Assembly: GCA_037043015.1 (NCBI GenBank) | Contig: CM073322.1 | Span: 10,179,601 to 10,243,600 of the forward strand | Direction: 5' to 3' | Origin: Bryum argenteum | Lineage: Eukaryota > Streptophyta > Bryopsida > Bryales > Bryaceae | DNA length: 64,000 nt | In this document: positions 12,937 through 64,000 of the stretch, in pieces | Position numbering within the stretch: position 1 is the first letter of the stretch | Layout of the letters: every line of letters begins with the position of its first letter | Program-made: the position numbers and the translations under genes | Notes under the pieces: model-generated | What the model was told of the DNA's origin: nothing | Database searches by the model: none | What the model saw: only the letters and a program-made list of their open reading frames with translations

Positions 12937-12940
12937 TTAA

Positions 12941-15138: not shown

Positions 15139-16066
15139 CCCCTAAAAATCCAGGGGTTTCCTCGACCTCCAGAACCAAAAACTGCCATTTTTCACCTTCA
15201 TTGGGAGATGGGGAAATGGAGAAACTTTTTTTTCTGGTTTTAGACTTTGAACCGTAAGATCTTGTACCTAACTTGTATACAAAGGACTGGTCAAAATTTC
15301 AACCGTTGGATGTTTTTCATTTGTGAGATCATAACAATCAAAGTTTGACCAACACTTTTTTTTCGCCGCTGCTTGAGAGGCATTGTCTAAATGGTGCCAA
15401 GGGCAACTTGATGATTGTTATTCCAAATATTTTTCCCTCATTTTTTTTCATGTAGGTAATCAAGTTGGTTATGCTCATGCAAAATTTTAGAGACCAATTC
15501 CACTTTTTGACCTTAATGTAAAATATTTTATGAAAGAAGGTCTAAAAACAACCATATAGTAAAACAAGCACCACGTATGATATATTTAGTTTGAGAAAAA
15601 TCTCGACGGTGAGAAGGTGCATTTATGATAATGTGAATTTTGAAAAAAAAAATCTTGGAAAAAATCCAAAATCTCGAATTTTGGCAATTTTTGAAAGAAA
15701 AAATTGTAAAATTACTAGAAATTGTGAAGATTGTTTTTGAAAGTTTTGGAGGCTGCCCTTGTAAAATTGGTAAACTTTTTGACTTCGGACACATTGGAAT
15801 TTGAATAGTAATTTGGCAATGAACATATTTCTAAAAAAAAAAAAATTAAAAAAAATTATTTTAAACTGCCTGTTTTGGACTTGAAACCTAAAATTTCTAA
15901 ATGAAGGTTATAAAATTAAAATTTGACTTTGAAAATTTTACCACATACACATTACTGTATGGGGAGCACCCAATAAAAATCTTAGGCAAAAATATCAATT
16001 TAAATGCTTAGAATGAGCTGCCCGAAATCTCAGAAAACCGAATCGGTTTTCCTGGATTCTTAGGGG
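15139..16066 (-). mobile_element. piggyBac-like non-autonomous element, copy 2
   Basis: Inverted copy of 12,014-12,936, with the same CCCCTAAAAATCCAGG termini and flanking TTAA (15,135-15,138 and 16,067-16,070). At the matching place in segmental copy 1 (about 546-560) the sequence reads GGATGAGACAGAAAGTAG, against GGATGGGACA-TTAA...TTAA-GTAG here. This is an empty site with one diverged tetranucleotide. Confidence 0.88.
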
Positions 16067-16478
16067 TTAAGTAGTAAGCTGTGTAATAAATGAAAAATTA
16101 TTCCTAGATTCTGAGTAGTTGTAAATTTGAACTTTTAGTAAAAACATGCAACATATCTCGCTTCCTAGTGGTAGTTTGTGTTTTACCTTTTTACGTTTGA
16201 TGTAGCCTTTTTCGCCCTTGATTTCTCAAAAACAGAGAAATGAAGAACACACTTCAGCAGTAATGAATGTCAGTCACTGGAAACACATACGCATAGTAGA
16301 GGAGGTCAAATAAAGCCGGAAAAAAAAAAGAGTGTGAATATGTAAGAGAAAAGATATGAACGGCAACCCTACCTTCAAAACCACATTCATTTCCAAATTG
16401 ATAGCTAACGCTTGAACCTGTATAATGCCTCAACCTAAATGCACAACTCTAGTCTGGCACCTAAATGCACAATCCTAA

Positions 16479-38400: not shown

Positions 38401-39237
38401 TCACAACCTCAATGTGTCCATAATATGCAGCAAAATGGAGGGGTGTGTCATTCTCAAGGTTCTTAGCATAAATGTTTGCACCGCAAGATAAGAGCTCCAT
38501 TACATTTTCCACAAATCCATATGCACAAGCCAAGTGCAATGGAGTGTTGCCATCTTTGTTGATTGCATCAACACCCTCCTTTGAAGCCTCTAAAATGGAT
38601 TTTACAACCTTCGTGTGTCCTCTCCACGCAGCAAAATGAAGGGGTGTCTGATCCTCAAAGTCCTTAGCATTAATGTTTGCGCGACAAGGTAGGAGCACCT
38701 TTACAATCTCTACTAATCCTTCCCTCGCAGCCAAGTGCAAAGGAGTGTCGCCATATTTGTCGATTGCATTGACATTCACGTATGAACGTTCTGCACAGTC
38801 ATGAGAATAGGGAGAAGTTTGCCTATCAGAGAACATGGATATGATCGATTGAACTTAGAAAGTTCCTTTTACAATCAACAAAATGATTCAGTAAGTGCAG
38901 CTTCATGCAAGGGCATGTTACCTTGTGTGTTTGTCGAATTCACATCCACCCTGGAAACAAGAGCTTCCACAACGTGAACGTGTCCGTAATGTGCAGCAAA
39001 GTGGAGTGCAGTCTGGCTCTCCGCTCCTTGAGCATTGATGTTGTTCGCAAAACGTGGTAGAAACTCATCGACAAGTTCGATGTAACCATGCTTTGATGCA
39101 ATGTGGAGTGCGTTGTTCCCATCTTCATTGTATTGTTCACCCACATCCACACCAAGCCCAATACTCAGTTTCACCTCGTCAGTGTTCCCTGTCTTGACAG
39201 CAATCCAAAACCTTGATATAACCTCCGAGTCCCCCAT
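35402..39237 (-). CDS. Giant ankyrin-repeat protein
   Basis: Start ATG is at 39,237 (MGDSEVISRFW). Exon 1 runs to 38,922 and exon 2 from 38,790 to the stop at 35,402. The 131-bp intron has GT-AG ends and keeps phase (phase 1, joining NTQ to ERSYVNVNAIDKYG). The product is about 1,234 aa, nearly all ankyrin repeats of 33 residues (consensus GNTPLHLASAYGFVEIVRVLLSCGANI / GHIEVVKTILEASKEGV), roughly 33-36 of them. Odd and even repeats differ, giving a 66-residue dimer, and longer blocks of about 400 bp are almost identical (37,339-37,518 and 37,741-37,920). Ankyrin arrays are protein-interaction scaffolds; no enzymatic, kinase or membrane domain is present, so the partner is unknown. The stop looks premature because repeats continue downstream. 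Confidence 0.85.
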
Positions 39238-44759: not shown

Positions 44760-45350
44760 TCGTGGTTTTGCCTGAAGCGGCCGTTGTGCTCGTACTGGCT
44801 GTATGTTGCCGCGAGCCCCTTTTGTGTTTTGCGAGCGAGGCTGGGGTGTTTGCAGGTGTAGGCAGAGCGTTAGGTGAGGGTTTGCTTAGGTGAGCTTTTG
44901 TTTCTTCACGAGAAGCGGCCGTTGTGCTTTCGAGAGAGCCGCAAGTCTTTGGCCGTTTGAACATCGTGTTTTACGAGTGAGTCTGTGTGTTTTTTGCGGC
45001 GAGGCCGCGAGGGTGTTTGCGGTGTAGGAGGAGCTTTAGTTTAGCGGGCGGTTTCCTCACTTTCGGGAGAAGCGGCCGTTGTGCTCTTAGAGAGCAAAAA
45101 CATTTGTGTTGTCATGTTTTGCGAGTGAGGTGTGTTTCGCGAGCGAGGGTTTTTTGCAGGTTAAGACGGAGCTTCTGACATAGGTGAGCTTCTGTCAATT
45201 TGTTGCTTCTGTTAATAAGCGGGCGTTTAGGTCTTAGAGAGCCGTAGTAGCTGTGTTGTGTGAGTGAGACCTGTATTGCGAGTGAGACCTCTTTTGCTTT
45301 TGCGAGTGAGACCTGTTTTGCGAGTGAGACTTGTTTTGCGAGCAATGGGT
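44760..45350 (+). repeat. GC-rich imperfect tandem repeats
   Basis: GAAGCGGCCGTTGTGCT occurs near 44,774, 44,912 and 45,069, defining units of about 138-157 bp that also share GCGAG.GAGG and TTGCAGGT blocks. From about 45,255 to 45,346 shorter units based on TTTTGCGAGTGAGACCT repeat four to five times. Short ORFs here are by-products of the GC-rich composition. Confidence 0.65.
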
Positions 45351-45523
45351 GTTTGCCGTAGCTTTAGGTGAGCTCGAGGGTACGGAGAGAATGCCAGTGA
45401 GGGTTTAGGGTAGGTTTTTCGGGTTGAACATTGTCTCGAGCAAAGAACTCGAGAGTATTAGGTGGAGTGCAGGGGTTCGACTTTCCACCAAAATGTGTTG
45501 TCGTGTAGGTTAAGGAGCTGACG

Positions 45524-45613
45524 AGGAGCTCTGGTGAAGGAGAGACTGCCGAGGAGCTTTGGTGAAGGAGAGACTGCCGAGGAGCTCTGGTGAAGGAGAG
45601 ACTGCCGAGGAGA
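45524..45613 (+). repeat. 28-bp minisatellite, 3.2 units
   Basis: Three consecutive units (45,524-45,551, 45,552-45,579, 45,580-45,607) differ by one base: GAGGAGCTYTGGTGAAGGAG plus AGACTGCC. A partial GAGGAG follows. It ends about 25 bp before the left inverted repeat of the large candidate element. Confidence 0.9.
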
Positions 45614-46018
45614 GGTGATCAACATTATTTAAACTAACACCATATTCATTATTTTGAGAGTATCCCTCAAAAATGAGAGTATTGTTGAGGCCCAGAAGTA
45701 ATGATAAAAGTACAAGTAGTCTGTAAAAAATGGTATCAGGTAGATATAGATGGATGAATAATTGTATGGCAGACTGGAATATACATGAATGTATGTTTAT
45801 TTATAGACATTGTATACAAGAATTGACTACGTCAAAGGAAATATGCTCATCCAGATAAAAATGTGAGCTCTGGTTACATACAAATGATACGAATGTACGA
45901 TGGTAAATACGATATTTCTATTCCAATAGAACACTCTGATGGTGGTGTTGAATGTGGGCTATCCCCGGAGAACCATACCGATCAATGTACTCTAAATCAT
46001 ATCAAGATCGTTGCCGTA

Positions 46019-46928
46019 TCACAAGTGCGAACGGCAATTTCGGCTAGTGCCTTCCACACTTCCCGGTCCACGACTATACCCCGTGTATGGTGACGAACGC
46101 GAACTTGAATTTTCACGTCGCTGAAGCTTCAAAATTCGTTGCTCCAATGCATCGCGAACAGGAGGAACCCTAACTCTGGACTGAAATCCATCGTGTGACT
46201 GAGTCTGGCGGTGACTTTCGTGTAATGGCGGGCGCATAGTACGGAAACGCAAACGCGAGGAATCAACAGAATGGGCAACAGGCGGTTTAGGTGGCTCCGT
46301 TAGTTCCGTCCGGCAGTCGCCAAGTTCTGTTGCTGGCTCCAAAGACTTCAATGGACAAGGCGTAGAGAGAGAATGGGTCGACGCACCACGAGATACTTTC
46401 AGCGACGATGCCTTATGAGGTGATAAAGGAAGAGCCGGAGACTCGACAATGACCGGTATGGGCACGACTGCTGTAGTTGTCGCCTAAGTGCATAAAAAGA
46501 CATAGAGAAATGTAAGTAAATCAAACTACGATGCCAGTTAAGAACCAGGAAAAACTCATAAATGAACTGCTTCAAGTATGTCATACTTGTACGGGAAGTG
46601 CATCATCAACTAACTCAGAATCATCGTAAAGCTTTCTTTGCGGAGCGCCACCTCGACTTGATTCGTCAATTAGGGTACGGGTCTTCAGCGGGGAAGGAGA
46701 ACATGCAGAGTGTGGTCGCTTACCGCCAAAAGGAGGACTATCCACAACACCATCATCAATTGCCATTGTCGAGTAGTCCATAGTTGATTGTGCAGTAGCT
46801 GCTGAGTACATTATGTGGCCCATTCCACTCTGCGAAATTGAGTATTGTCCGTAGTCCAAAATCGAATCAGCAGAAGCAGCGCAACGGAAATCAAAATCAT
46901 TGTCCGAAACCGAGACAGAATTGGACAC
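46019..46928 (-). CDS. Ser/Pro-rich hypothetical protein exons
   Basis: Two exons are supported: 46,928-46,587 (114 codons, entered through a TATCCAG/ acceptor) and 46,483-46,019 (ending in a stop). The intron has a GTATGA donor and CACTTAG acceptor and conserves phase 0 (PVQ joined to ATTTAVVP). The product is Ser/Thr/Pro-rich and probably disordered, with an acidic first part and a basic second part; no domain is recognised. There is no start codon in exon 1, so an upstream exon is required. It may be the 3' end of the FCP1-like gene by alternative splicing, or a separate gene. Confidence 0.5.
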
Positions 46929-47190
46929 CTGGATACGAATTCATTTTAGAGGAATCATCAACAAGGATGATATGCAATATGATATAACCAAATCACCTCG
47001 CTAGTTAAACCAATGCTGAGAGAACTAGCATCATCAAACACTACAATAAAATAAAGGGTCGGACAGAAGCCCGCTCTGAAATGACATCAGTCCAGGAGGA
47101 GACATTAATATTGAATCATTTATTATAATCTACACAATATACATGACAAATTTGAATCTTGTCTGGTGAGGCCAATCATGGTTAACTAGC

Positions 47191-48363
47191 CTAATCATGC
47201 ACTAGCTTCCTAGAAGCCTCTACGGCGTTAATAAGCTCTTCGTATTCTGAAGTATCAAGCTCTTCAGAAAGCATTCTACGCCCAATGTTGTCTTCCCTAC
47301 GGAAAGACAACAAGCCCTGACCGCGGCTTTCATGTAGACGTCGAATCCAAGGGAGGAGCTCGTCCACCAAGAATCTGTCAGATACATCATGCTCTGACCA
47401 CGAAACTGGGAGTACGACATTCTCTGGTTCATTCACGACGTGCTTCTCACGGCTATCGTCGATGATGATCGTGTCATGCTCATTAAACTTTAAGTTTAGA
47501 CCACTGAAAAGCATATCCAGTGGTTTGAGGAAGAGATCCTTATTAGTCTCCTTCAACTTGAAGTTGGACAACTTATTCCGCGGTCCACGAACCTTGACAA
47601 CCTCACAAGAGTTCTGCCCCCAAACAAGGCACGGGTATGGCACACCCCGGAACAAGTAGTCACATATGGACTTCGTGGTCGCATGAACCATCGAACTCCA
47701 TACGGAGACGTATGCAACTTCACTCAACTCACGAAGGAAATCATGGCGAAGGGGCCGAACGAAAAACACCTTGGGACCAATCGGAGCGGGCGGGACGAGG
47801 AGGAATGTGCGCTCGCGACCATGTTGTAAACTTGGTCCTTTGGCATGAATCTCTTCTCCTTGCGAACCACGAGAGGATACCGTTCAAGTCCAGGATGACA
47901 TTGAGCCACTTGCATGTCACCCTTGACGGAATAGAACGAGGATATCCTCCACGGCCGCAACTACGGATGTCGCGAATGACTCATCCCCTGTTCGAAGAGG
48001 GGGCGGACAAATGTGCATACTGATTAAATCTTTGCCTTTGCCACATTTCGAGACTGACCCTTTCTATAACACTAAGAAATTTCGAATCCAAAGAATGCGA
48101 TCACACCGATATGGAAAGGATTGAATAAATTTTGGAGAAGGAGCAGCTTACCGGTGTATCTGATTGAATTTCAGCTGTTTGTGCATCTCGTACAGCGGTC
48201 GACGATGGAAGTGGAATGTGAACCTCGAGCGAGTGGGAATCGGGAATGTGACCTTCATTGTGATCATCTTGCGCCGTGTTACTTGGCTCACCATGAAACG
48301 GACTCATAGGACTGGTGTCATGAGACACACTAACATTTGGAACACTTCGCAAATCAATGGATC
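47191..48363 (-). pseudogene. FCP1/NIF-like HAD phosphatase domain, frameshifted
   Basis: Exon 48,363-48,152 (acidic, Ser-rich) is followed by exon 47,987-47,191. The latter encodes ILDLNGIL (HAD motif I; D-x-N as in the plant LDLNG subfamily, 47,880-47,895), then FFVRPLRHDFLRELSEVAYVS, VWSSM, a Lys-bearing segment (LKETNKDLFLKPL), and IIIDDSREKHVVNEPENVVLP (DD motif). It closes with a D-x-LLPWIRRL helix and a stop. This order is that of NLI-interacting-factor/FCP1 phosphatases, which act on phosphoserine in proteins such as the RNA polymerase II CTD. Between motif I and FVRP the frame must change at least twice, so this copy is damaged. Phase compatibility with the upstream gene suggests it may be its C-terminal part. 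Confidence 0.6.
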
Positions 48364-48572
48364 CTGCGTAGATATCAGAGGGAGAAAATGTGTAAGAAAA
48401 TATGATTGTATTCCAAACTCTGAGTTCAAAATTGAGCGTCATATACAAAAGTATTTACACGATGAACACCAAGTCCAATCTAACAAAACGCCCTACGGGA
48501 ATATATATACTAGTCTATCAACAATCGCCGAAGGCTTCTACAAAGAACTTCCATTAACCGAAGGAGAAATTC

Positions 48573-48587
48573 AACTCGAGTCGAGTT
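48573..48587. repeat. Palindrome family, single copy (intron 4)
   Basis: One copy, AACTCGAGTCGAGTT, with flanks TTC/AAT, lies in the stretch 48,364-48,617 that would be an intron if the ParB/methyltransferase-like gene continues into the FCP1-like exons. Confidence 0.9.
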
Positions 48588-49616
48588 AATTGAAAGACTA
48601 GATCATGGAGTTCAACCCGATTCGGTAATGTTGGGATCGGAGTCCGATCCTGTGTTCCTATCTCGCTCTTCCTCATCCACGGCCTTCCGTTGCGACTCGA
48701 CCGGGTCCGATGGTGTGGAGCGACTTGATGGGCCTTGATCCGTAGAAACAATCGGAGAGTTGGTTCCCGCAGTGAGTGAGGAGCAAAGCGATTGATCGAG
48801 GAGGCGTGCCTTGGAGGGAACGTCGGGAGATGCATGTCGAGCCGCACTGCACCGTCGGAAGACCGAGTAGGCCCGTGGGTCGGGAGGAGAGGTTCACTCT
48901 GACCTGGTTCGAGGGAGAGGAGAGGCTTTGCATTCAGGTGCGAGATTGCTTGGACTACCATATCAGGCATTCTCGCGATGGCCTCTGTGAACATGAACTT
49001 CCATCGCCGCTCATCCTCCTGTCTCGGGATCGCGTTTCTCGCGCTCTCGAGCAAGCATTGCTTCAACTTCGATCCTATGTCGAGTCTGCGCATCCTCCTG
49101 CATTTTGGCGAGCTTCTCCATAAGGGTTTCAACGGATAGTGACTCCCTTTTCCTCTTCTGTGGCGATGGCGTAGAAGCCCGAAGAGAGGTATCCGAGTAG
49201 CCTTGTTCCAGGGGAAGATGCGAAGATGAGCCTCGTCCAGTCTGGGGTGTTACCGGGTGTTGAGAACCGTAGGCCTCAACATCCTGGATAGGATCGTCAT
49301 CGTCATCACTTGACCCGATTGCGATCGGTCTTGGGTCATGCAAGTCAAGTGCTAACTGAACACCGCTGACCTTCTTCTTCCCCTTCCCCTTCTCAGACTT
49401 CGTGGGGAGTGGCGGTGCTTCCAGTCTCTCCCTGGATAAGGAAGGCTCATCGATCGCGTACCCTTCTTCGAAATCACGACGATCCAAGTTGAAGACATTC
49501 AAGGAAAGTCTGACAACATCGTCGTGCTCTTCGGTGGAGCTGATCGTGTAGTTCATCAGGGAACACATCTGCAAGTACACACATCAAGAGATGCAACGTC
49601 GATCAGAAGATTATTT

Positions 49617-49954
49617 AACTCGAGTCGAGTTGAAATGGAGGTGGCGTGTGAGAGCAAGACCAGACTACACTTCTATGTGCATTCAACTCGAGTCGAGTTG
49701 AATACCAACATTACACTCTAAGCTCCATGAAACACCAAATTTAACTCGACTCGAGTTAAATCGAATAACACATGCATGAACAAGATTTCCTAGCAAATTT
49801 AGTACTCCATTCAACTCGAGTCGAGTTGAATAGACTTAAAGTTAGTGTACAACGATACCTAGACAAATAGGTGCAAAATGAACCCGACTCGACTTTAATA
49901 CAACTAGTATGCACGAAACAGAGCCATGGCGAACTATTCAACTCGAATCGAGTT
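49617..49954. repeat. Palindrome family, six copies in a 408-bp intron
   Basis: Copies at 49,617, 49,685, 49,743, 49,813, 49,881 (degenerate) and 49,940, spaced 68, 58, 70, 68 and 59 bp. All lie in the intron 49,569-49,976, which they fill. Core AACTCGANTCGAGTT with outer TTC/GAA or TTT/AAA. Confidence 0.95.
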
Positions 49955-51367
49955 GAAATATATAGGACATCCTTACCCAGGCCGCACAGTAGAGCTTCCC
50001 GCCTCCAAACACACTGAGGATCGCATCCCCTTCCTTGCAGAAGATGTCAAGCAGCTTCAGGTAGAACTCCATCCTCAATTCCGTATTATAGATACGGTAC
50101 TCGAGCTCGTTGTATCTCCCGCAGATCTTGAACTGTGGAGTGTTGGGGGCCTGGAAGAACTTAGGAAGATTCGAAATCCTCAACTTCTGATTTTTTCGAA
50201 ACAAGAAAAGGATCTGGACATGATCCTTGGCCCCTTTCTTCGACGAGTTTTGGTCCTCGAGTCGCTCGTAAGGAGCCGGAACGTACTCAGCATACTCAAT
50301 CTTGTAATTTGCTCCGAACTCGCAAGTGTCGAGGTGATTCTTGATCTTCGCCTCGGCATCCTTACTACCGCAGATCCAAACCCAAATCGGGATTTCGATT
50401 TACGGGGGTCCGTGATAGACTTGAGGACTTGGAGGACGTTGTAGAAGTAGGAGCCTGGACGAGCTCGACGACGCCGATTCCTCATTTGCTCCGGGAGATT
50501 TCGAAGTCCATAATTCCGACCTTGATTCGCTTAGCGGACTGCTCATTCCAAGCGTTCTCGTGCCATTCCCCTAGAACATCGTCCTCCAGGCTGTAGGCCC
50601 TGAAGTTTGTTTCGCCCTTCGGAACCTGGAACTTCCCCTTGTTGGCGAGGAAGCATCCAAGAACTCATTGCATACGGCGAGAGTTGCTCAAAGGACTTGT
50701 TCTTGTTGTTGGGGAATTTCGCCAGCGTGAAGAAGTCTTCCCCGGGATTCGTGAGGAGAACGTTTAGTGTAGCTGGAGTGATCTTAAAATCCCTCTTGAA
50801 TTTCTTCCAGCTCTCCTTCCCGAAGTCCCTACTTGTCTTGAAAAAGATTAAGTCGGGCGCATGCTATGAATGACGCGCTTCACGATGGTCTTCCTCTTGC
50901 AGCGCTCCAGCCAGTCGTAAGAGCTGTAGCAATCTACAAGCACACCCTTCATCTGCTTCAATGTGACCTTGGGGTATGAGTGGCGCCGTTTTGGGTTAGG
51001 TCATTCGAGATATGCTCGCCTAATCGCTTGAGTCAGGCGTAGCTACGATTTCGATCCATTTGAAGAACTCCCTGGTGATGTGTCCATGGTCAGGCTTCCA
51101 CTTCCCCAACTCCTTCAGCTTCCTTCCTGTTTCGGGGTCGATGAGCTCCCCTTGGGATGCAGCTGAGATTAACTCAGCATAGACGTCGTAGACGTCATCT
51201 GGAGCAGTGATGATTTTGAGCTCATTTGCGATGTTGAGCTTCTCTCTGGCGGCCTTGCTAGTTGTCACTGCTCTTTGGGCGTTCTTGACGTCGATGAGAG
51301 CAAATCTTGTCCTGACAGCTTCCATGAACTCCTGTATCATCCGAGTACGGTATTGAGTTAGATATTT

Positions 51368-52085
51368 AACTCGAATCGAGTTGAAATAGGATTCAATGAA
51401 GGGCAATGGTAAGCTTGGGGTATCACTTTTTGGACACACTAATTAGGTTATTTTTATTGAAAGCCTCCAAAGTTTGTCTAATTTAGTCATTTTAATCAAG
51501 TAAAAAGACCCTAGAATAGAAAATAAAATATCATGCACCTCATTGAAATCAAAGTATGTATGCCTATAGATTTTCTTTTAGATTTTTTATTTTTTTTGGA
51601 TCCATTCATAGATGAGGGAAAAAGTGTTGAATTTGGGGATTTGCAGGCATTATAGTGCACAATGAATTAATTTTTTTATTATTAAATAAATTATTTTGTA
51701 TTCTATACAAGAAGATGTAGGTCATATTCAAAAATCATATTAAAATAAAAATGGTTGATATTCCATTTGCTTGGTTCTATAGATTTTAGGTTATTGGGAC
51801 ATGACTTACTTTTTCAACTAAAAAATCAAATAAAATTACTTCAAAATATTTTTTTTAATTTCTAATTTTTTTTCTTGATACATTATAAGTATAGACAACT
51901 AAAACCACATCTAATGAAGTCTTATTGTATTACAGTTTAGATATGGATATGTTTGTCACACCAGCATAGAGTGCAATTGTTCATGGGACAACCTTTTTGG
52001 GTACCCCAACCAGACCATCACTCTGAAATAGAAATTCAGAAATTATCGTTAGAAGTGTAGGACATTATTCAACTCGAATCGAGTT
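51368..52085. repeat. Palindrome family, two copies flanking an inserted element
   Basis: Copies AACTCGAATCGAGTT at 51,368-51,382 and 52,071-52,085, both in the intron 51,332-52,103. They are separated only by the inserted 621-bp element and about 70 bp, so they were about 80 bp apart before the insertion. Confidence 0.95.
51401..52021 (-). mobile_element. 621-bp non-autonomous TIR element, copy 2 (intronic)
   Basis: Near-identical reverse complement of 5,721-6,341, inserted inside an intron of the ParB/methyltransferase-like gene, between two palindrome copies. It carries no ORF. The low divergence from the copy 45 kb away suggests recent activity of this family. Confidence 0.8.
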
Positions 52086-53592
52086 GAATGTAGGTACACA
52101 TACGTTGAAATTGTCCTTTGCAGGCTTCTTGCCCTTGCCGGGCCTCTGAGTGACGACCCTGCCAACCTCTAGAGCCTCCTTCGGATTCTCCGGTCTACCA
52201 AAGCTTACCCACAGCTCCCGCGCCCCAATTATGTTTGTCGCCCACGTCGGATTCGTATTCATGAAGTGGTTGACCCTGTTGTAGAACGCGGAGATTCTTC
52301 GAATGATGGGCTTTGATTCGTTCCATACCACGAAGCAGTCCCATGTCTTGAATTCATCCTTGATGCTTTGGTCTACATCAGGCATGAGCTGCAACTGCTT
52401 GGATGCCTCGACGCAATGCTGTCCGTTGACCATGAAGAACTCCCCGTCCTTTACGTCCTCCCATGATCGGGGTTTCACAAGCTGATTCTTTGGGTAGACG
52501 CAGAGGGTGTTCTTCTTGCTCTTATCGGACATCTCAATCAGGAAATGCCTCGTGTTCTTGACTTTCTCCTGCTCGAGGTTTTCGAATGTTCGAGTCCGCA
52601 GGGGTAAAGAGACGCTCGATTGGAATCTCGAAAGTCACATCCGAGCCAAAGATGTATGAGCTGCGGCGAGCCCCCCCCGGAGTTCTTGAAGACATTCATG
52701 GACTCCTTGTAATCGACAACTTTGTCTACATTGTCGATGGGTACCTCCGTCAAAGCCGACACTAAGTCGGCCTGTTCAATGTCGGTGGGGTCGGCCAGGT
52801 CGACTTCTTCGTCGTGACCGATTTGAGCTTCTTCTTCGTGTCGGCCCCCGCCGAGCCGTGGACGGATTCGCCTTGCGCCTCTTGATCCCGTCGCCTCGGG
52901 AGTCTCGGTATAGGATAGACTCGTGGCGCCGCCAGACATGCATGCTTACTTCTGCGTCGACGAAGAGGCGTCATTTGCATCTTCTTGCGTTGCGGCTTCG
53001 CCTTGAAGTTCACCATGGCGTGACGAGTGATCGGAGACGAGGCGCGAGAATACTTGGTGGGCTCGCTGCTCACCGCCATCTTTTGTGAATCGAAACTCAC
53101 GAATGTGTTGCTCGACATTCTTCGCCGAAGGTTCGTAAGGAGTATTCTTAATACTGTCGACATGTGCCAAGATGTCGAAATCCATCTTCGTTGTGTCGAT
53201 CATGTAAGTGAACCTGTAGTCTTGGTCCACAGCCGTGTCGTCGTTGGGGTCGTCCACGATGCACGTCACACATATCCAATTCGTGTTGTGGACTACAACG
53301 TCGATGATGTTCTCTTCCAAATTCACAGGAAGGTTGCACTCCGCACCCGTGTACTTGGTGACCACAGCCAGCTTGTCCGTGTGCGGTGTGAGGAGCATAC
53401 TCCACCATTCGACATCCGCAGGATTACTGTGCACCCACATGTCCCCAAATATTTCGGGATCTGCGACCTCGCTATCCTATTCAGGAACATAAGGATCGAA
53501 GAAGGCTGAGAGCCTCTCCTTGGGATTTTCTCCTGCTGAGAAAGAGAGGCAACTTTAGTATTTATGTACTCGAAATGCATGGATTATTATTC

Positions 53593-54663
53593 AACTCGAG
53601 TCGAGTTGAAATTGCATTCTCTACTTCTCAATTATGTTCATCTTTCTTAGTAAGGAAACTGGACTCAACTCGATTGGAGTTGAATGCTTTCATGATGGCG
53701 TACATTGGTATCTACATGTACTTACTATAGTTACTGCCCATGGTTACTTAATTAACGATATTAACATCGTTTCCAGATTATAGTTACTGTAATGATATTC
53801 AACTCGAGTCGAGTTGAATCTAGTGTTTGTTTGTGATCTGTTTGAGTAGCTGACAAGATTGTACCCCCTTCATCTTAAAAAGGGTTCAACGGTTTCAGAT
53901 GTCGTGACGTTCGCTGTACTCTAATTCAACTCGAATCGAGTTGAATTTCTTATCTTAAGTTTAATGAGTCCGACTAACAGGATTACCTCGCTAATTCTCA
54001 TTAACTCGAGTCGAGTTAATTGTTCTGGACTTCTGCAACTTCACGAACCACCCAACCTTGTTTGATCCGTTTCAACTCGACTCGAGTTGAATTCTACCTG
54101 TGTTAACTCTACCTGATTTATGGAGGTAAGCTGAGTTATCGTAAAAATAGTTGATTAGATCTTCTAGACTTACTGTAGGCTATTTTATTACTGGACTTCT
54201 TGTCTAGTTTAAGTTGTGCCCAAGATTCAACTCGATCCGAGTTGAATAGTTCTTTGGAAGTCATTCAAGTCGCCTATATGATTTAACTCGGGTCGAGTTG
54301 AAAATGCATGCTAGAATGAATTTACTAAATGTTAATAGTATAAAGGTAGTTCATTTTAGCTCGGTTCGAGTTAAATTTTAATTAGCTTCTGTAATTGCAC
54401 TGAGAACTTTATAGAGTCGGTCCGTTTCAACTCGACTCGAGTTGAATTAGTATGACACATGGTAACGTGAGGAGCTACTCTAATTCAACTCGAGTCGAGT
54501 TGAATTGGTAATGTGTCCTAATTTTATCCTATTCGGAAATATATTAGTCACACGTCACTACTGATTATGACCCTTCGATATTAAAAATTTACTAGAATAG
54601 AGATTCAACTCGGGTCTACTTGAATTCTATCTGCTCTGTATGAGATTCAACTAGGGACTAGTT
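53593..54663. repeat. Palindrome family, thirteen copies in intron 1
   Basis: Copies start at 53593, 53667, 53801, 53928, 54003, 54074, 54229, 54285, 54358, 54429, 54487, 54607 and 54649. All lie in the first intron (53,533-54,727) of the ParB/methyltransferase-like gene, between its ATG and the second exon. Spacings cluster at 56-75 bp, with gaps of 120-155 bp that look like lost copies. The last, AACTAGGGACTAGTT, has a matched change in both arms. Confidence 0.95.
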
Positions 54664-56177
54664 GAACTGCCAACGATTCTGCTAAAACAACTTTACATTG
54701 ATCGAGTAAAATATACTATTCACTCACCCATTGATAGATCTGCTTCTCTTCTACTATGAAAATACCGCACGCAATTCAACAAGGCTCAGCTTTGCCCTGA
54801 TCCTGTAGGAACAAAAATGTATACAAATGTGATCAATACTGCATTAAAACAAAATTCGTTGCAATCCAGTAGAACAACATCAACAATCCATGCAAAAAAT
54901 TCCTAAATTCACCTCATATGCGACCATTTACAACTGAACATGGTAAGAAAAACAAAAATCCAGGTTAGCTGATCCAGAATCAGCGAACAATATCGAAGAT
55001 CTAAGCTCCTGCAAGTGATCAATTCTGCTGGTGATCACAGTCGTATCCAAAGCCTATTTATACAAGACCAAGTTGCAAAATACTTCAATACAAGCAGAGA
55101 TCCGACTGTAATGCCACTGAAATCAAATTGCAAAACGACACATTGACTAATTAGCGTAACATTCATACAAGAGTGGCTCCTGCTGTTCAAACGTGATTGT
55201 ATACCAGTACATGAAACAACCATATTATCTCTTGAAACGAAGAGAGATACGCCACAAGATTTTTAAAACCTCTAAGAAGGCAACACAAAAACCAGAAACA
55301 AAGACTCAACATCATTGATGCAAAACGTCCAGAGGAAAAACTGAATTGAAAGAAGACCAATACAAGAGGCAACAGGCATCATCAACTCAACCACATTCTG
55401 AATTGAAGCTTGCTGCTGAATTCAACCACATTTCATGTGGGCTTCTGCTAGACGAGACCCTAAAGAGACTGCCGGTGAAAACCCGGCCCCAAAAAACCTC
55501 AAAATCCCGCCTCGATTCGGATTGCAAGCCGCAACTCAAGTGAAAGAAGACCAACACAAGAGGTTCATGCAATCCGAATCGAGGCGTAATCAAGAGATTG
55601 CAGGTGAAACACAAGAGGCAACTCCGCATTCACAAATTTCAAAAACAAAAAAACCTAAAGCTTACCAGAATTTCCTCAATCGTGTCGTCCGTCGCGGCGG
55701 CAATAGAAGCTCTCTTCCCGTTGTGATCGAAGCACTCCGCCGCGGCCGCCGCCGCCGCGCGTGAACGAACACCTTCACCGCCACGACCGCGCTCCTCTTC
55801 GCGCAGCTTGTCGAAAATCCTCCTCGGCGCAAACCCCAAAAACTCTAAACCTATCTACGATGAGTGCGCCTCGAACGAAATGGCGGCAAAGCAAACACAA
55901 GCTCACCACCACCGCTAAAAGACAAAACCCTAGAACCTCAAAACACAAATAAGAAAACGACAACGTATCGGCGAGACAAAAAGACAAAAGCAATAATGCG
56001 GCGCGAACTCCGCGGATGGCGGAGGAGCAAGAGCAAATGGAGCAAATGCGCGCAGAAGAAGTAAAAACAGAGCGCGCAGAAGATAGGGGACGAATGGCCA
56101 GTGGGTGAGGAAGATGGGGAGTGCCTCGTAATGGCGGCGGTGGTGGGACGTCCGTACCCCTTCACGAAAAAGTATTC

Positions 56178-56273
56178 CATGCATGGGCATGTGCATGGGC
56201 ATGGTCATGCACATGGTCATACACACATACATGGCCATGTACATGACCATGCCGATGCACATGATCATGGGCA
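56178..56273. repeat. CATGNN hexanucleotide array
   Basis: About 16 hexamers of the form CATG plus two variable bases. Because CATG is its own complement, both strands read as a His-rich frame (HGHVHGHGHAHGH). The local ORF is a by-product. Confidence 0.9.
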
Positions 56274-56630
56274 TTTCAAACTTTTTACTTTAGTCATTAA
56301 TTGTTGTAAGCTTCTTACTTTTTATGTATATTTACTAATTTTTCCACTAATTCTTGTCTAAGTTATGATTATGATTATGTCTAAGTTCTGTTCGAATTCT
56401 GACTAAGTGAATGTGTAGGTTTTTAATGGAAGTTTCTGACTAAAATGTAATTAAACCCGGGCCGCCTTACACGCTGCCCCCGCCATAAATTGCTTCGGGT
56501 AGCAATCTCTTGCCCTTGTCATATCTGCCAGCCTCTACACTACACTAAATTCCATTATATTTTTCATTTATTTCTAACTATTGTTTTAAGTTAATTTTTT
56601 TGAAAAGAAGAAAAGTTTAATAAATGCCAA

Positions 56631-56727
56631 AACCCTAAACCCTAAACCCTAAACCTTAAACCCTAAACCCTAAACCCTAAACCCTAAACCCTATACCTTA
56701 TACCCTAAACCCTAAACCCTAAACCCC
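56631..56727. repeat. Interstitial telomere-type repeat (CCCTAAA)n
   Basis: About 14 units of CCCTAAA with a few variants (CCTTAAA, CCTATAC, CTTATAC). This is the Arabidopsis-type plant telomere sequence. It is internal, with unique sequence on both sides, and lies in the divergent intergenic region, where it may act as a telo-box cluster or mark an old repair event. Confidence 0.95.
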
Positions 56728-58676
56728 TTCCCAATTAGTTTACGTTCTCCAATCCAATAAGGTCATCATTAACTCGAAAACGAAGGTAATAAATTATCCC
56801 CTCTCTATTAATTTCTAAGATGTTGTCAACTCATAAAATTTTATTATTAATATAAACACCTACAAATTAAAAATATTAGTGGATAGCTATATAATCAAAT
56901 AAGAAGGTTTGAGAGAACGAATTGGACAATATGAATAAGACTATGAGAGTATATAGATAGAAGATATCTTTAACAAACATCATGTATACTATAGACATGC
57001 ACCACACATATCATGGCCATACATCACAACTATCATCGACGTACATCATTCATACCATAGCCATACATCATACTTACCAAAAGATCGTCCAAGAGTTTTA
57101 TGTTTGAGAAGTAGATTACTGACTACAAACCTTATATATATCTCTATATACGTATGTTAATTTATTTATATATTCATGTATATACATATTTGAATTCGTA
57201 AGCGTATATGACAGGGCCTCCCTTCTCTAAATTAAGATAGCACAATAAATGCTCAATACGTAGTCAAATTTATCTTATAATCATGCATCATTAAATTGAA
57301 ATATTATGTATTTAACATCTATACCCGTATTTATGTACATATATGTACTTATTTATCTAAGTTAATATTCATTTGTACTCGGGTATATATCCATGTATAC
57401 CAATTTTAACTCGTATGGTCATATAATTGCGCTTTCATTGTTCTATATTAAGATAGTACAATAAATGCTCAATACGTAGTCAAATTTATCTTATAATCAT
57501 TCATCATTGAATTGAAATATTATGTATGTAACATCTATACCCGTATTTATGTATATATACGTACTTATATATCTATTCATATACATTTGTACTCGTATAT
57601 AGATGAATTAATATATTATGTATTTATCATAGTATGTATTTAACATATTATGTACTTAATATATTATGTATATATTGATGTATATTGAAATGTATTCATA
57701 GATCCATTTATTTGTAGTGATTTTATTCTATGTTAGTATTTTATGTTTTTTTTTGGTATTTTTTATTAGTAGTGAACCATATATGTGATTCCATTGATTT
57801 TGAGTTACTAGGTAAAGTATTGTCAATGGAATGTTCTCAATTACTCTAGTTACTCTAATTTTGTAAATATTCTATCTTATTCAGTAAATTTACGTGTACG
57901 AATTTGTATTTTTTTTCCACAACTCATACATGTGTATTGAATGTTTAATTTTATGGAGAAAAAATTAAATCACATTTCTTTGTAAAAAAGTTAAATTGCA
58001 TACTTACGAATGGGTTTCCCTCCAAAATCGATTTCCCTTGAAACATCTTTGCCGCCAAATATTTTCAAATTCAAAATTAAAAAGTAGATTCCTATTTCGA
58101 AGCTCAATCAAGATAACATGCAGGTGGCGACAAAAAGAGGTCGGCTTTTTGCACGATATCGGGAGTCGAGGATACTCGACCGATTCAACCGTTGAGGTCG
58201 GGTTGGGGTGTAACGCAGTCCCTCATGTTTCATTTCGATTTCTCTCACTCTCGTCCGTGCTTTGAAGGTGCGCTTACCTTGATTTCGTTCATTTGTCCTT
58301 GTTCAAAGTTGCGTGTCGATTTAGATTGTATTGAGTTTGTCTTTGATGGAGTTTAAAGTAGTTTCCCATTTTGAGGTTCTAGTATTGTAGAAGAGGCGCA
58401 TCCTCTTGTACTTTGATTGTGTTTACAGTTATCGAAGTTGCTCGTGCTGTATTGTTTGTCTTCCGCATACGAATTGCTGATTGTTGTGCGTGCTTTTTTC
58501 AGCTGCGAGCCCTGGTATTCCTCGCGAAATCTGCAATTCGCAGGTGAGCGTTCTTCGGAATTCCTCAGTGTTTGTGATTCTTGAATTTTGATTTTGAGCT
58601 GATTACGAGTTCCGGGAATTCCGCCGGTATTTCCGGGTGAATGTGTTCATCACAGGTCTCCATATTTTAATCATTT

Positions 58677-59715
58677 AACTCGACTCGAGTTGAATTAATT
58701 ATGCAGGTGTATATAGGTCTGTCCAATTTCAACTCGGGTCGAGTTAAATTGTAATTCAGTCCTGATTCCGTAATTAGGATTTTAGACTTATTGGTGGTGA
58801 TATTCAACTCGACTCGAGTTGAAATGGAATATATCCGATTTCATGGGGGTTCTTCCCTTTACGGTACGGATATTCAACTCGGGTCGAGTTGAATCACGAG
58901 TTGGATATCAAGCAGATTATAACAGCCAAAATGGATTCAACTCGAATCGAGTTAAATGTGGATAAGAGATACCTTCTATATGCCTAAAACTGATATTTAA
59001 CTAATTATGGACTTATTTCGAAGTTATGGACTTTTTGCAACTAATGAAGAACCTTGGTTTTATCGGCGGCCAGCCGACACATCCCCATATCTGCGACTTT
59101 CAAAAAGGTCACAACTCACTCAAATTTTGTCCAAATCAAACATATGAGGTGTTTTTTGACATCTACATTTTCTGTAGATATCAAAAAACACCTCAAATGT
59201 TTAATTTGGACAAAAATTGACTGAGTTATGACCTTTCAAAGATTACAGATGGAGTCTCAAGATTATATCGGCGGACAGCCGACATTATTTCTGGACTATG
59301 AATTTGTCCATAATTAGTTAAATATCAGATCTAAATGAATGTCTTAGAATCCGATATGCTGTATTCATGGATATTATCATTCAACTCGAGCCGAGTTGAA
59401 TCGGTTAACACCAAGATCTTCAGGTGATTTACAGTAGTCTTGTCGATTGTTGTAGTTTCTATATAGGGCTCATATACATGACTATTATCTATGTAACATG
59501 ATTTAACTCGATTCGAGTTAAATATGAATTAGCACATATTTTGAGATATACGTTTCCTTGGAGTAGGTTATCTTCGTTTATCTATGGGTATTCAACTCGA
59601 TTCGAGTTGAATACCCATACTTCTTAGCTGGAAGAGAATTCATTCCAACATCTTGTCTACGTATAAATAATTCTTCTCGATTTCTGTCATTATTCTATTC
59701 AACTCGAGTCGAGTT
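58677..59715. repeat. Palindrome family, nine copies in the 5' UTR intron
   Basis: Copies start at 58677, 58731, 58806, 58876, 58939, 59383, 59505, 59594 and 59701. All lie in the presumed intron 58,544-59,768, whose acceptor (TTTGCAG/) is 8 bp before the ATG of the DUF7869-like ORF. The gap 58,953-59,383 is filled by the fold-back element. The copy at 59,594 sits in a perfect 37-bp palindrome (59,583-59,619). Confidence 0.95.
58990..59328. mobile_element. Fold-back element, copy C, nested in the palindrome cluster
   Basis: A perfect terminal inverted repeat of 23 bp begins CTGATATTTAACTAATTATG (58,990-59,012) and is mirrored at 59,306-59,328. The interior is an almost continuous hairpin around GAGGTGTTTTTTGACATC and GATATCAAAAAACACCTC, the same core as near 1,030 and 11,600. 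Two TATCGGCGG-CAGCCGACA blocks sit between the arms and the core. Confidence 0.85.
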
Positions 59716-59776
59716 GAACCACCACATATTCTTCTGTTCCTTAAGTCGCGTTCGTGATCAATTTGCAGACTCTTCC

Positions 59777-62620
59777 ATGGCTGAACAAGATGCTCAATTG
59801 CTTGGTGATTTTTCCTCTGATGAGGAGGTTGCGGAGCAACCCGATGTTCCAGTAGACGTTCCAATGTGTGAAGGTATCCCTCGTCGTCTTTGAGCTACAA
59901 AGTTCGTTACTCTTCACGGTGAGGAGGGTCGCCCTGTAGCGGAGGGACTTTGTCACAACATCAGTTACGATCTCGTCCTCGGAAGCAATGGTCCACTTGG
60001 GCACTCCAGAGTCGCAGTTCAAATCTCGAAGACCCTCGATGCCACAGTGGTGCCAGATGAGTGGAGATATTCTGTCAGGGCGTGGCCGATCGATAAAGTC
60101 TTCTATAATGGGTCTAGTCTCAGAGACCATGGGATACGACACGATCATGACTCTCGTCTTGCACGTCTTGCTAGACCTCAGTCATCACGTAGCCGGAGTT
60201 ACAACAATACATCTAGGAACCCGCCTCCTGAAACATCCGTCAAGTCCAAAGGCTTATTAACTCAGAAGTCCATCAATTCTGTCTCCAGCAAAGTTTGCTG
60301 CACCAGGAACTGCGTTCAGCCCTTCCCGAGGGAAAAGATCCGATGTTTCCGAGAGCGGATGTATAGTGGTACAACCTACCAATTCAGGTTTCACATGAAG
60401 CTTGATGTGCACAGGCAAGTTCATCGAAATGCTGGCGGGAAGAGGGTGGTCACGGTTGAGGGAATCGATGTTTGCTTGCCTGCGTGGAGACATATTGCTG
60501 GAGTGTCCGAGGCGACCTTTCATCGGTTTCAAACGTACGTGGCCGATGGCGTCATGGCGCATCCCCATGGAAATTCGTCTTTGCTTAAACCGCGCAAGCA
60601 CACGTCGCAGGCAACTGCAACCCTGCGTTGCATCCTGGAGAACTCTGCCGATCACATGCCGCATCGAACGAGGACACTAAAATCTGGAGAGAAGGTTGTA
60701 TCCATGATTCTTCCCGCTACATGGAAATGGAAGAGTACCATTCCGGAAATCAACGCCGCAAACGAAGGCTTCGGTTTGAAGATGGTCTCACCATCTTCTC
60801 TGAGTAGAATTCGGAAGTTACACTTTCCTGAATTTGATGCGAAGAAACCCGGGGATAACTTCGCTCGGTGCTCCAAATGTGATCGGTTGCACACACTTCG
60901 TCGTGGCTCTATTTCCAGGTCGCAACAAGCACTACTTTGGGCAAAGAAGCTCGAGGTACACTTGGCTGCAGCCCGTGCTCATCGGGAGTTATATTATGCA
61001 AACAGGTATAGGTCGAAAACCTACCCGCATGAGTGTCTGACCATTATGCATGACAAAATGGATCATGCGAAGACTGCTTCCCCTGTCTTTTCTCACAAGA
61101 GTAAGGAGCTCGATGGTCTCGTGAAGCTATCAGTATCCGTCACAGGAATGATCGCTCATGGCCACGGAGATGTACGCTACGCACATTACGGTCTAGATAT
61201 TTTCGCACACGATTCAAATTACACGGTAGGCTCTTTTGCTAAGTCGCTCCTCCGAGATATAGAGTTGCCACCAAAGTACTCTTCGAGGGAGCTTTTTCTT
61301 GATCGAGGTCGGCACCTATCTTTGATCTTTGTTCTCCATGGTGCGGAGACTTGCGTATCGTCACTCCGTCCAAAGACCACTGCCCGATTCGAGGGATTTC
61401 TCTTCCGCCAATTCTCAATGTTCAGATGGACAATGCAGCAGGGGACAACAAGAATAGATATGTATTCTGTTTTTGGTCTCTCCTTGTCGCGAAGAAGATC
61501 TTCCGCGAGGTATATGTGAATTTCATGTTGGTTGGGCATACCCATGATGACATCGATGCAATGTTTGGAAGGTGGAGCATCTTTGTTGAGGAAAGACAAT
61601 TTCCCCACTATTCCGTTACTCATGAAATCTTTCATGGACGTGGAATCTATTCCAGCCATCCCCCACCTTGTTGAAGAGGTGCCGGATTTTAAAGGATTTA
61701 TCGATGGGTTCATCAGGGATGGAGGGGAAGCACTTGTTGGTCATACGAAGGCACAACAATTCAAGTTCTTTTTGGATTCTACAAGTTGTCCCGTGATGAA
61801 GTACAAGGCTTCGTGCACAGCAGAAGATTGGTTGCCAAATGATACAACCGGAATTAAGTTGTGGAGAGAGGACTCGGAAGGTCGTTCTTTGTGGCCACGT
61901 GGTGATCCAATTCCTACGACGCATCGTGCAATGAGGGGTGTGGAGGACATTGTGAAGGGCATTTCTGGATTTATCAAGTACTGGGAGGCAATGTCTAATG
62001 AAGATAGAACTGGAGAGTATAGAAGACGCTATGAACATCTTGTGTTCTATTGGCGCGCTGTGAAGGCAGCTCTAGAGGTACCCATTGAACCATCAAATGT
62101 TCTTCGGGACGGATTTTGGCCATTGTCCAGGATAGATGCGACTTTGGAGGACCAATTTGCTGAAGATGGCGAACTTCGTGAGGAGTTTGGGGAAGATGAG
62201 GCATTTGTTGGAGAGATCCGAGATCGCCCTCAACCATCTTTTCGTGTAGCTCGTGATGTTTATGAAGGATACTTTCTTGCTATTCGGCCTGCAGATGGTG
62301 ACTCACGACCGGTGTGGATCGCTCGAGCGTTGTCAGATTCGAACATAAACCCCGAGCAGCCAAATTACATCCTTATTCAATTCTTTCGGCCTACATCAAG
62401 GGATCGAGATGTGCAAGAGACCTACAATGGATGGGATTCGGTCAAAGGATTGCGTTGGAAGGTTGACGATACTCAACCTCCTTTGTGGGAGAATACAGCT
62501 TCATTGATGACTTCATGGAAGTCAAAGGTCAAGAAGGATACAACCGAGTGCACTTTAAAAATTCCGGTGGATCAAATTAAAGTCATTCACGATACTATAG
62601 TTGAATTTTCTAATGCTTGA
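59777..62620 (+). pseudogene. DUF7869-like transposase, one stop and two frameshifts
   Basis: ATG 59,777 (MAEQDAQLLGDFSSDEE) opens a frame broken by TGA at 59,891-59,893, then open to 61,519. The conserved core continues in another frame from about 61,303 to 61,606 and returns to the first frame to the stop at 62,620. About 945 codons in all. Features: CCTRNCVQPF and CSKCDRLHTLR (possible zinc ligands); IMHDKMDHAKTASP, NVQMDNAAGDNKNR and VGHTHDDIDAMFGRWS, the three acidic motifs of an RNase H-like DDD/E nuclease as in DUF7869 proteins; then a C-terminal SH3- or BAH-like stretch (GYFLAIRPADGDSRPVW). The second shift lies at a C4 run (61,602-61,606). Family assignment is from memory of the motif pattern; the transposase role is likely but inferred. 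Confidence 0.7.
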
Positions 62621-63137
62621 AGGTCTTATATGTATTGCAATCGTATTTGAGTATTGTAACAACTACATAGTCATGGCTTTGTCTTCCGACTTAGAAATAA
62701 TAATCTTTTGTTTCAAATTCAAAAGATTATAGGCATTTATAAATATAGAAGATATGTTAGACCGAATGATCTACAAGGATGTGTGGTTTAGGATGTTGGT
62801 AGTATCAATGGAATATGGACTATCTTCAAGTCACTTAGCTCACTTCGAGCAACACTTTGTTTGTGGTACTGGGTTTCATTTGAAATCAAAAATACATTGT
62901 ACGCATTTATGAAAATATATTTCGATACTATATTATAGTATTGATTTGTTCTTTCCAATTAGTACTTTTGTCCATTGATTTATGTGAAAAAAAATCATAA
63001 CATGTATTTAATTTGTTATAAAAGGTAGTAGTGGTTAGCACCACTGATGTTTGTGTGTGTCATACATGTCACAATTAAGGGTACGTGGTTGGTTGGTAGC
63101 AAATATTTTCCTGCCCGTTGAAGCTCACTTAGCAGTA
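62621..63137. other. 3' flank of the DUF7869-like gene
   Basis: AT-rich, with no ORF of note. It should contain the 3' UTR and any right subterminal sequence of the candidate element. No palindrome copies and no poly-A signal that stands out. Confidence 0.4.
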
Positions 63138-63249
63138 CCAAGTCATGTGTACATTTTAGCTGCTCAAACGAGTCCGACCGGAATCGAACTCGGACCACCT
63201 ACGTTGTACAGAAACTCCTTCTCATCCAACCACTGAGCTCATGACTTGG
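63138..63249 (-). mobile_element. tRNA-derived SINE-like element, copy 2
   Basis: On the minus strand GAGCTCAGTGGTTGG resembles the tRNA D-arm/A box and GAGTTCGATTCCGG the T-arm/B box, in the right order and about 35 bp apart. The unit is bracketed by a perfect inverted CCAAGTCATG/CATGACTTGG. It is homologous, with upstream tail, to 20,139-20,246. It lacks a cloverleaf acceptor, so I do not call a functional tRNA. Confidence 0.65.
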
Positions 63250-63445
63250 TGTCCATTTCAAAATTACTCCGGTCTTTATATTAATCAATTGGAAAAAGCG
63301 CTTCGAAACGCCACGGTGCACAAACTTTCCCCCATATTATACTATAATTTGAATGGAAACTTTAAGATTCATAACTTTCTAAGTTATTTCTGTACAACAA
63401 AACATCATTCTAAAACCTCTCAATTTCATTTTGAGAGGATTATTA

Positions 63446-64000
63446 ACTCTCAAAATAATGAATATGGTGTTAACTGTCGGTTGTTTGCTGAGGAGTGGAA
63501 GCAGAGCAGACTCTTCATTTGACGCCTTTCTTATTTGCCGCATTGGTAATTTGTTTAATGAAGAAGCAGGTTTAGGGTTTAAGCCGTTCACGGATATTGT
63601 TGTAATAATGTGGGGAATGCTTGTTTGTAACTTGTACAGGAAATGGAACGTGCATTTCCAGCCTCTGTAACCCCCCACTTAGGTCATAGAGGCTGCAAAT
63701 TCTTTTCGGTTCTGTATTGTAGTCTGCTCGGTCGATGTGCATGACTCTTACATTCAATTGCTTAGTGTTATTCAGGTGTCAAATTGCTTAGTGCTATTCA
63801 GCTGTCAAATTAGGGTAGCGTACAACGCAGATTTAGAAAGGATTGTGTAAAAGATTAGAAAATCTTGTACTTGATTTGGGTAGGATTGTAATTGATTCAG
63901 CAAGGATTGTACTTGAGTGTATTCAGTATTGCTTGCTTACCATGAGTGTGACATTTTAGTAATTGTCAATTCAGTAGACAGGTTTGTAGGGAGCTTTTAA
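63446..64000. other. Right inverted repeat and window end
   Basis: 63,446-63,472 is the 27-bp inverted match of 45,636-45,662. Beyond it, short ORFs on both strands lack coding character; a TTGCTTAGTG(T/C)TATTCA.GTGTCAAATT repeat occurs twice near 63,758-63,810. Confidence 0.45.

What the first reader, a model, noticed from the sequence alone, without database searches (positions are those of the whole stretch)
48573..59715. 31 copies of a near-perfect palindrome confined to introns of two divergent genes
The core AACTCGANTCGAGTT, usually extended to a 21-23-bp palindrome with TTC/GAA outside, occurs 31 times. Every copy falls in an intron I infer from splice sites and frame: 13 in intron 1, 2 in intron 2, 6 in intron 3, 1 in a possible intron 4 of the ParB/methyltransferase-like gene, and 9 in the 5' UTR intron of the DUF7869-like gene. 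I see none in exons or elsewhere in the window. One motif shared by introns of two divergent genes suggests a functional site: an RNA hairpin in pre-mRNA, a cruciform, a methylation or silencing target, or transposase/ParB-like protein binding sites.
Basis: partly seen in the sequence, partly recalled or inferred. Interest (0 to 1): 0.92.

Follow-up and report, generated by a model that had tools for sequence, protein, structure and literature searches.

The report
Palindrome arrays in moss transposon introns
The repeated palindromes lie in the introns of a 17.8-kb moss "jumping gene" and are kept there even in distant relatives, which suggests they are docking sites for a protein made by the element itself, perhaps one that helps it escape silencing.

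Summary
In detail: 31 copies of the palindrome, 30 in four inferred introns of two divergent genes and one just past a stop codon. The genes belong to a transposon: window 45636-63471 is a 17,836-bp element with 26-bp terminal inverted repeats and 4-bp target-site duplications, seen in 11 of 11 copies read. Motif counts per intron are nearly constant in these copies, and motif bases vary 1.9- to 4.8-fold less than the rest of the intron. Two diverged relatives (32-49% identical proteins) keep a variant, TTTAGCTCGANTCGAGCTAAA, in the same introns. Genome-wide, TTYARCTCGANTCGAGYTRAA has 11,655 places with at most one mismatch; the reversed-pattern control has none. From a paired state, 91 of 95 changes touch one arm only: against an RNA hairpin, for a double-stranded DNA site read by a dimer. 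Best reading: sites for an element-encoded DNA-binding protein, probably the partner gene, working like the VANC/VANDAL anti-silencing system but not a member of it. Binding and anti-silencing are inferred, not shown. Related palindromes also lie in MITE inverted repeats, so the motif is not purely intronic genome-wide.

The parts
45632..45635 (.). left target-site duplication AACT
   Evidence: 4-bp duplications in 11 of 11 copies
45636..45661 (+). left terminal inverted repeat, 26 bp
63446..63471 (-). right terminal inverted repeat, 26 bp
63472..63475 (.). right target-site duplication AACT
45636..63471 (.). whole transposon copy, 17,836 bp
47194..47883 (-). NIF/FCP1-like phosphatase reading frame inside the element
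   Evidence: Pfam PF03031 E=1e-10; open to about 48071 in several other copies
48573..48587 (+). single palindrome just past the gene A stop
   Evidence: one copy in the matching place in the relative
48612..49568 (-). gene A exon 4 (frame broken in this copy; open 327 codons in E1)
49569..49976 (-). gene A intron 3, 6 palindromes (49617-49954)
49977..51331 (-). gene A exon 3 (methyltransferase-like by eye only; frame broken in this copy)
51332..52103 (-). gene A intron 2, 2 palindromes (51368, 52071)
52104..53532 (-). gene A exon 2 (ParB/DGQHR-like region by eye only; frame broken in this copy)
53533..54727 (-). gene A intron 1, 13 palindromes (53593-54663)
54728..54731 (-). gene A start codon and end of exon 1, ATGG
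   Evidence: 11 of 11 copies
58544..59768 (+). intron just 5' of the DUF7869 start codon, 9 palindromes (58677-59715)
59777..62620 (+). gene B, DUF7869 protein (inferred transposase; frame broken in this copy)

Best explanation
The palindromes are double-stranded DNA recognition sites (half-site TTYAACTCGA around one free base) of a large cut-and-paste transposon family of mosses. A protein encoded by the element, most likely gene A, binds the arrays as a dimer within the element's own transcribed introns and keeps the element open to expression by opposing host silencing, in the manner of VANC proteins on VANDAL elements. Shown: the element, the sites, their conservation, and their recurrence in the same introns of diverged relatives with shifted sequence. 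Inferred: that a protein binds, which protein it is, and anti-silencing as the outcome. I put an element-encoded binder at about 0.7 and anti-silencing as its role at about 0.5.
For: Transposon: (TIRs; 4-bp TSDs in 11 of 11 copies read). Constraint: diversity of motif versus other intron bases A1 0.154/0.285, A2 0.025/0.121, A3 0.048/0.115, B 0.061/0.129, with CDS at 0.047; the central N is free (0.248). Near-constant counts in 11 copies: A1 11-13, A2 2, A3 5-6, B 9-12. Same introns in a relative whose gene B is 49% identical to the Ceratodon protein and whose gene A exon 3 is 38.5% identical to copy E10; a third type with CCCA..TGGG arms in introns 1 and 2 of a gene A homologue 32-38% identical to the Ceratodon protein. 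Translations in other records read as the palindrome where it is expected: P0122, P0123, P0124 after exon 2, P0029 before DUF7869 (DNA not seen). One-armed changes 91 of 95 from a paired state. Gene A dN/dS 0.17-0.30 in 7 comparisons. In VANDAL21 the VANC21 motifs lie in introns and other noncoding DNA and form repeats, targets differ between families, and VANC6 motifs also occur in the unrelated AT9TSD1 (PMC5735166, Results read), as the MITEs do here.
Against: No binding, methylation or expression data. No DNA-binding domain was recognised in gene A; its ParB-like region gets only DUF6551 at E=0.06, below cutoff; the structure model is poor (pLDDT 43) and its fold search gave nothing at E<=0.001. 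The sites are absent from the intergenic region and, one 2-mismatch match in 3 of 11 copies apart, from the element ends, unlike VANC21. In pooled copies two position pairs change together more than expected: C4/G20 (50 doubles, 39 of them T/A, 25.5 expected) and C9/G15 (7 doubles, all A/T, 1.5 expected). Of 33 changes from an unpaired majority state, 17 single and 1 double restore pairing. Motif CpGs decay less than other intronic CpGs, which fits protection but also plain selection. The blastn failure in the relative also covers gene A exons, so it is not specific to introns.
Confidence: 0.5

Rival explanations
1. Host-factor sites: the arrays are intronic enhancers or insulators bound by a moss transcription factor and exploited by many elements.
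For: Sites lie in introns close to start codons; similar cores occur in several subfamilies and in MITEs.
Against: A 21-29 bp near-fully conserved palindrome is long for a plant transcription factor (general knowledge), and the sequence shifts between subfamilies (AAC/AGC, CAG..CTG, CCCA..TGGG), as expected of a co-evolving element protein.
Confidence: 0.17
2. Sites for the transposase or for strand exchange during transposition.
For: Related palindromes lie inside the inverted repeats of a MITE family; three of 11 copies have one 2-mismatch match 1.36 kb from the left end.
Against: In the window copy no site lies within about 2.9 kb of the left end or 3.7 kb of the right end, and the TIR has no motif; the clusters sit in introns.
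Confidence: 0.13
3. RNA hairpins in pre-mRNA (splicing control, retention or small RNA).
For: Nearly all are in inferred introns and perfect palindromes can fold. Two position pairs show excess double changes in pooled copies, and 18 of 33 changes from an unpaired state restore pairing.
Against: From a paired state 91 of 95 within-ortholog changes touch one arm (64 break the pair, 27 leave G.T); 3 are compensatory. No Rfam match in 45000-64000.
Confidence: 0.05
4. Target of the element's own methyltransferase-like domain, a self-mark at the central GANTC or at TCGA.
For: The centre reads GANTC, the site of CcrM-type enzymes (recalled); the end of gene A exon 3 resembles a beta-class methyltransferase motif I (by eye).
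Against: No [DNS]PP[YFW] in the two sequences that include exon 3 (E10, P0121; none in the 6 exon-2 ORFs either). Both central flanking bases (A..T) are intact in 271 of 343 copies, against 305 and 317 for the neighbouring C and G positions.
Confidence: 0.06
5. Neutral by-product: tandem duplication or small hairpin insertions in introns with no function.
For: Arrays in relatives have near-exact 46- and 53-bp periods.
Against: 1.9- to 4.8-fold lower diversity in the motif, a free central base, and recurrence in the same introns of relatives with 32-49% identical proteins.
Confidence: 0.05

Closest known systems
VANC/VANDAL sequence-specific anti-silencing (Arabidopsis; PMC5735166, PMC10398659)
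   Same: DNA transposon with a transposase gene and partner genes; short motifs repeated in introns; motif differs between related families; a motif shared with an unrelated element.
   Different: Site is a 21-29 bp palindrome, not a 9-bp oriented motif; the gene A homologue has no DUF1985/DUF287 match; almost no sites in terminal or intergenic DNA; 4-bp TSD (VANDAL are Mutator-like with longer TSDs, recalled); anti-silencing untested.
Spm/En TnpA (named in the PMC10398659 discussion; site details recalled)
   Same: Element-encoded protein linked to activation and demethylation of its own element.
   Different: TnpA sites are short and subterminal (recalled); here they are intronic and far from the ends.
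Bacterial ParB-parS (recalled)
   Same: Palindromic sites; gene A exon 2 has a region like the ParB/DGQHR fold by eye.
   Different: No significant family match; linear plant transposon; no ParA among the proteins scanned.

Membership tests
VANC/VANDAL system | motifs clustered in noncoding DNA of the encoding element | tested here: met
VANC/VANDAL system | VANC protein family (DUF1985/DUF287) | tested here: not met
   only a weak DUF6551 hit in the Ceratodon homologue at E up to 10 (HMMER filters apply)
VANC/VANDAL system | protein binds the motif | not testable with these tools
   needs EMSA or ChIP
VANC/VANDAL system | loss of DNA methylation over the element | not testable with these tools
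   needs methylome data
TIR DNA transposon | terminal inverted repeats with target-site duplication | tested here: met
   11 of 11 copies read
TIR DNA transposon | DDE/D RNase-H transposase | tested here: inconclusive
   D427, D552, D594 invariant in 29 aligned sequences; no fold match at E<=0.001
ParB-parS | ParB-family domain | tested here: inconclusive
   DUF6551 E=0.06 in 1 of 7 members; profile search of PDB sequences found nothing
Beta-class DNA amino-methyltransferase | catalytic [DNS]PP[YFW] (motif recalled) | tested here: not met
   0 of 2 sequences that include exon 3

The most novel reading that the evidence does not exclude
A eukaryotic transposon carries its own parS-like system: a ParB-like protein encoded by gene A loads at intronic palindromes, spreads along the element and shields the whole element from silencing, with site and protein co-diverging between subfamilies.
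Probability: 0.13. Interest if true: 0.95.

Novelty: new variant of a known kind. Interest (0 to 1): 0.78.

Why it matters
Motif-directed anti-silencing by transposons is best documented in Arabidopsis VANDALs (PMC5735166, PMC10398659). A moss family without a VANC match, with thousands of sites that shift between subfamilies, would suggest that such systems arise repeatedly. It offers a long, highly specific palindromic site with a candidate binder beside it, and would make an escape-from-silencing arms race testable in mosses that can be transformed.

Tried and rejected
Structure of gene A exon 2 (pLDDT 43) and of DUF7869 (pLDDT 70, pTM 0.47): Foldseek gave no match at E <= 0.001, so no fold is claimed. 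IMG/VR: no exact palindrome and no DUF7869 relative (14 stretches matched a pattern, none confirmed). Rfam: none in 45000-64000. At first I took the MITE palindrome to be the very end of that element; alignment of 10 copies showed that the repeats run on outside it. A sex-chromosome or other non-recombining nature of contig C1 is only a guess: 18 of 27 exact TIR places lie on C1, 17% of the genome (the two ends of one copy are not independent). Literature: the listings showed no description of this element; DUF7869 occurs in 0 papers held. Of PMC5735166 I read the outline and the whole Results, of PMC10398659 the outline with abstract and the Discussion, of PMC12730594 passages only; the rest are listings.
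Full report
Observation. The palindrome is real and far above chance: 31 places at 48573-59715 plus one hit at 40263, against a shuffle mean of 2.13 and maximum of 6. Assigned to the gene model, 13 lie in intron A1, 2 in A2, 6 in A3, 9 in the intron just before the DUF7869 start codon, and one about 25 bp beyond the gene A stop codon. Splice sites are canonical, exon 1 reads ATGG|GTGAGT in 11 of 11 copies, and the spliced frame of exons 1-3 of copy E10 is open over 932 codons. In the window copy both genes carry frame breaks.

What it is. A perfect 27-base inverted repeat at 45635-45661 and 63446-63472 marks a transposon. The TIR pattern (one free-looking first base, then AACACCATATTCATTATTTTGAGAGT) has 88 forward and 83 reverse places with up to 3 mismatches in the 258.8-Mb genome; of the 100 listed, many form convergent pairs 16.6-17.8 kb apart, and a few pairs lie 21-30 kb apart. 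I read 10 pairs plus the window copy: 11 of 11 have 4-bp target-site duplications (AACT, TACA, TTAA, TAGA, AAGG, TTCA, ATAA, TCTT, GTAG, CTTT, CTTG; flanks). Copies are 90.4-97.6% identical over BLAST-aligned pieces. Genes: DUF7869 (inferred transposase), gene A, and a NIF/FCP1-like phosphatase frame. DUF7869 relatives include Ceratodon purpureus (79%) and Physcomitrium patens (62%), so the host is a moss by inference. The gene A homologue in Ceratodon, KC19_3G000200, has the locus number next to the DUF7869 gene KC19_3G000300.

Constraint on the palindrome. In the 11-copy alignment the 23-bp motif columns have mean diversity 0.074 against 0.179 in the 40-bp flanks, while the central N has 0.248. 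Region by region, motif against other bases: A1 0.154/0.285, A2 0.025/0.121, A3 0.048/0.115, B 0.061/0.129; coding sequence 0.047 (the hypervariable A1 may be inflated by alignment error). Matches with up to 2 mismatches per intron hardly change: A1 11-13, A2 2, A3 5-6, B 9-12, elsewhere 1 in 8 copies and 2 in 3 copies (E3, E7, E9; the second one 1.36 kb from the left end). dN/dS of gene A is 0.17-0.30 in six exon 2 comparisons and 0.19 in one exon 3 comparison; 4 and 2 of 11 copies passed the script's splice-pattern and open-frame filter.

Relatives. A stretch at G000:C1:15253001-15273000 has a 971-codon open DUF7869 frame, 49% identical to the Ceratodon protein, with 14 palindromes of type TTTAGCTCGANTCGAGCTAAA just before its start codon (acceptor seen, donor not located); a gene A homologue in the same stretch (exon 3 38.5% identical to E10) has 3 in intron 2, 5 in intron 3 and 1 past exon 4 (23 hits with up to 5 mismatches, all placed). 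Whether these two genes belong to one element is not settled, since both run on the same strand. Blastn (word 7, E 1e-3) between the window element and this stretch aligns only gene B coding sequence; it misses gene A exons as well as introns. A third type with CCCA..TGGG arms lies with a gene A homologue 32-38% identical to the Ceratodon protein: of 12 hits with up to 4 mismatches in L054, 1 lies in intron 2 and 11 upstream of exon 2; L055 has none. Of 127 proteins scanned, four (P0029, P0122, P0123, P0124) have translations that read as the palindrome where it is expected; two further rows were not counted, P0124 in a second frame and P0126, a chance-like match.

Genome-wide (overlapping counts). 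Type 1 has 2,393 places with up to 2 mismatches, the AGC type 7,148 with up to 2 from its deaminated form, the CCCA type 2,734 with up to 3, the CAG..CTG type 1,323 exact, and the merged pattern 11,655 with up to 1; reversed-pattern controls are 0 in each. Of the 85 distinct exact type 1 places listed, 66 lie inward of a listed TIR, 18 more lie near a DUF7869 match, and one has neither (placed by hand). In the 88 distinct CAG..CTG places listed, 10 of 20 gaps between 0.7 and 20 kb are 1.3-1.9 kb, near the lengths of gene A exons 2 and 3 (1.43 and 1.36 kb), and the commonest short gap is 46 bp. A DUF7869 search found 1,946 first-look candidates, 80 scored: most like the window family and, at 52-54% identity, 20 matches on many contigs, 14 of them without a stop in the matched stretch.

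Mechanism. If the arms had to pair in RNA, changes should be compensatory. Among 33 orthologous sites (334 copies), 95 changes start from a paired majority state: 91 one-armed (64 broken, 27 G.T), 3 compensatory, 1 double and broken; a further 33 start from an unpaired state, of which 18 restore pairing. Over all 343 pooled copies two position pairs change together more than expected, C4/G20 to T/A and C9/G15 to A/T; these could reflect shared ancestry of copies. Long symmetric sites with a free centre point to a dimeric DNA-binding protein. Because the site shifts symmetrically between subfamilies, an element-encoded binder is likelier than a host factor. Gene A is the candidate by analogy with VANC; no DNA-binding domain could be shown in it. 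The anti-silencing step rests on analogy: VANC21 binds motifs in introns, intergenic and terminal noncoding DNA, its targets form repeats that diverge fast, and VANC6 motifs also occur in AT9TSD1, unrelated to VANDAL (PMC5735166). Here related palindromes also lie inside the inverted repeats of a MITE family (window 890-1200; 470 first-look candidates, 40 scored; 10 copies aligned). These could be hitchhikers on such a system or a sign of a transposition role.

Verdict. A transposon-borne cis-site system not found described in the searches made, analogous to VANC/VANDAL but not a member of it. The DNA facts are firm; the binder and the outcome are inference.

Noticed in passing
window 890-1200: MITE with a related palindrome (AGC arm) in each inverted repeat; family on many contigs.
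   Followed up: partly
window 58985-59333: About 350-bp foldback insertion inside the DUF7869 5' intron of this copy; in the 10 other copies read the flanking palindromes are about 97-108 bp apart instead of 444. Its middle resembles the MITE at 890-1200 by eye.
   Followed up: partly
window 56630-56726: Plant-type telomere-like CCCTAAA repeats in the intergenic region of the transposon.
   Followed up: no
G000 contig C1: 18 of 27 exact TIR places on a contig holding 17% of the genome; possibly a non-recombining chromosome.
   Followed up: partly
window 47194-47883: NIF/FCP1-like phosphatase frame carried inside the transposon (Pfam E=1e-10).
   Followed up: partly
G000:C1:511445-511675: Merged-pattern palindromes at a 35-bp period, another array type.
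   Followed up: no
window 35402-38854: 1150-aa ankyrin-repeat reading frame made mostly of 201-bp tandem units.
   Followed up: no
window 6627-9800: About 11 tandem copies of a unit of roughly 276-317 bp.
   Followed up: no
window 12010-16070: Large inverted repeat, main arms 96-99% complementary.
   Followed up: no
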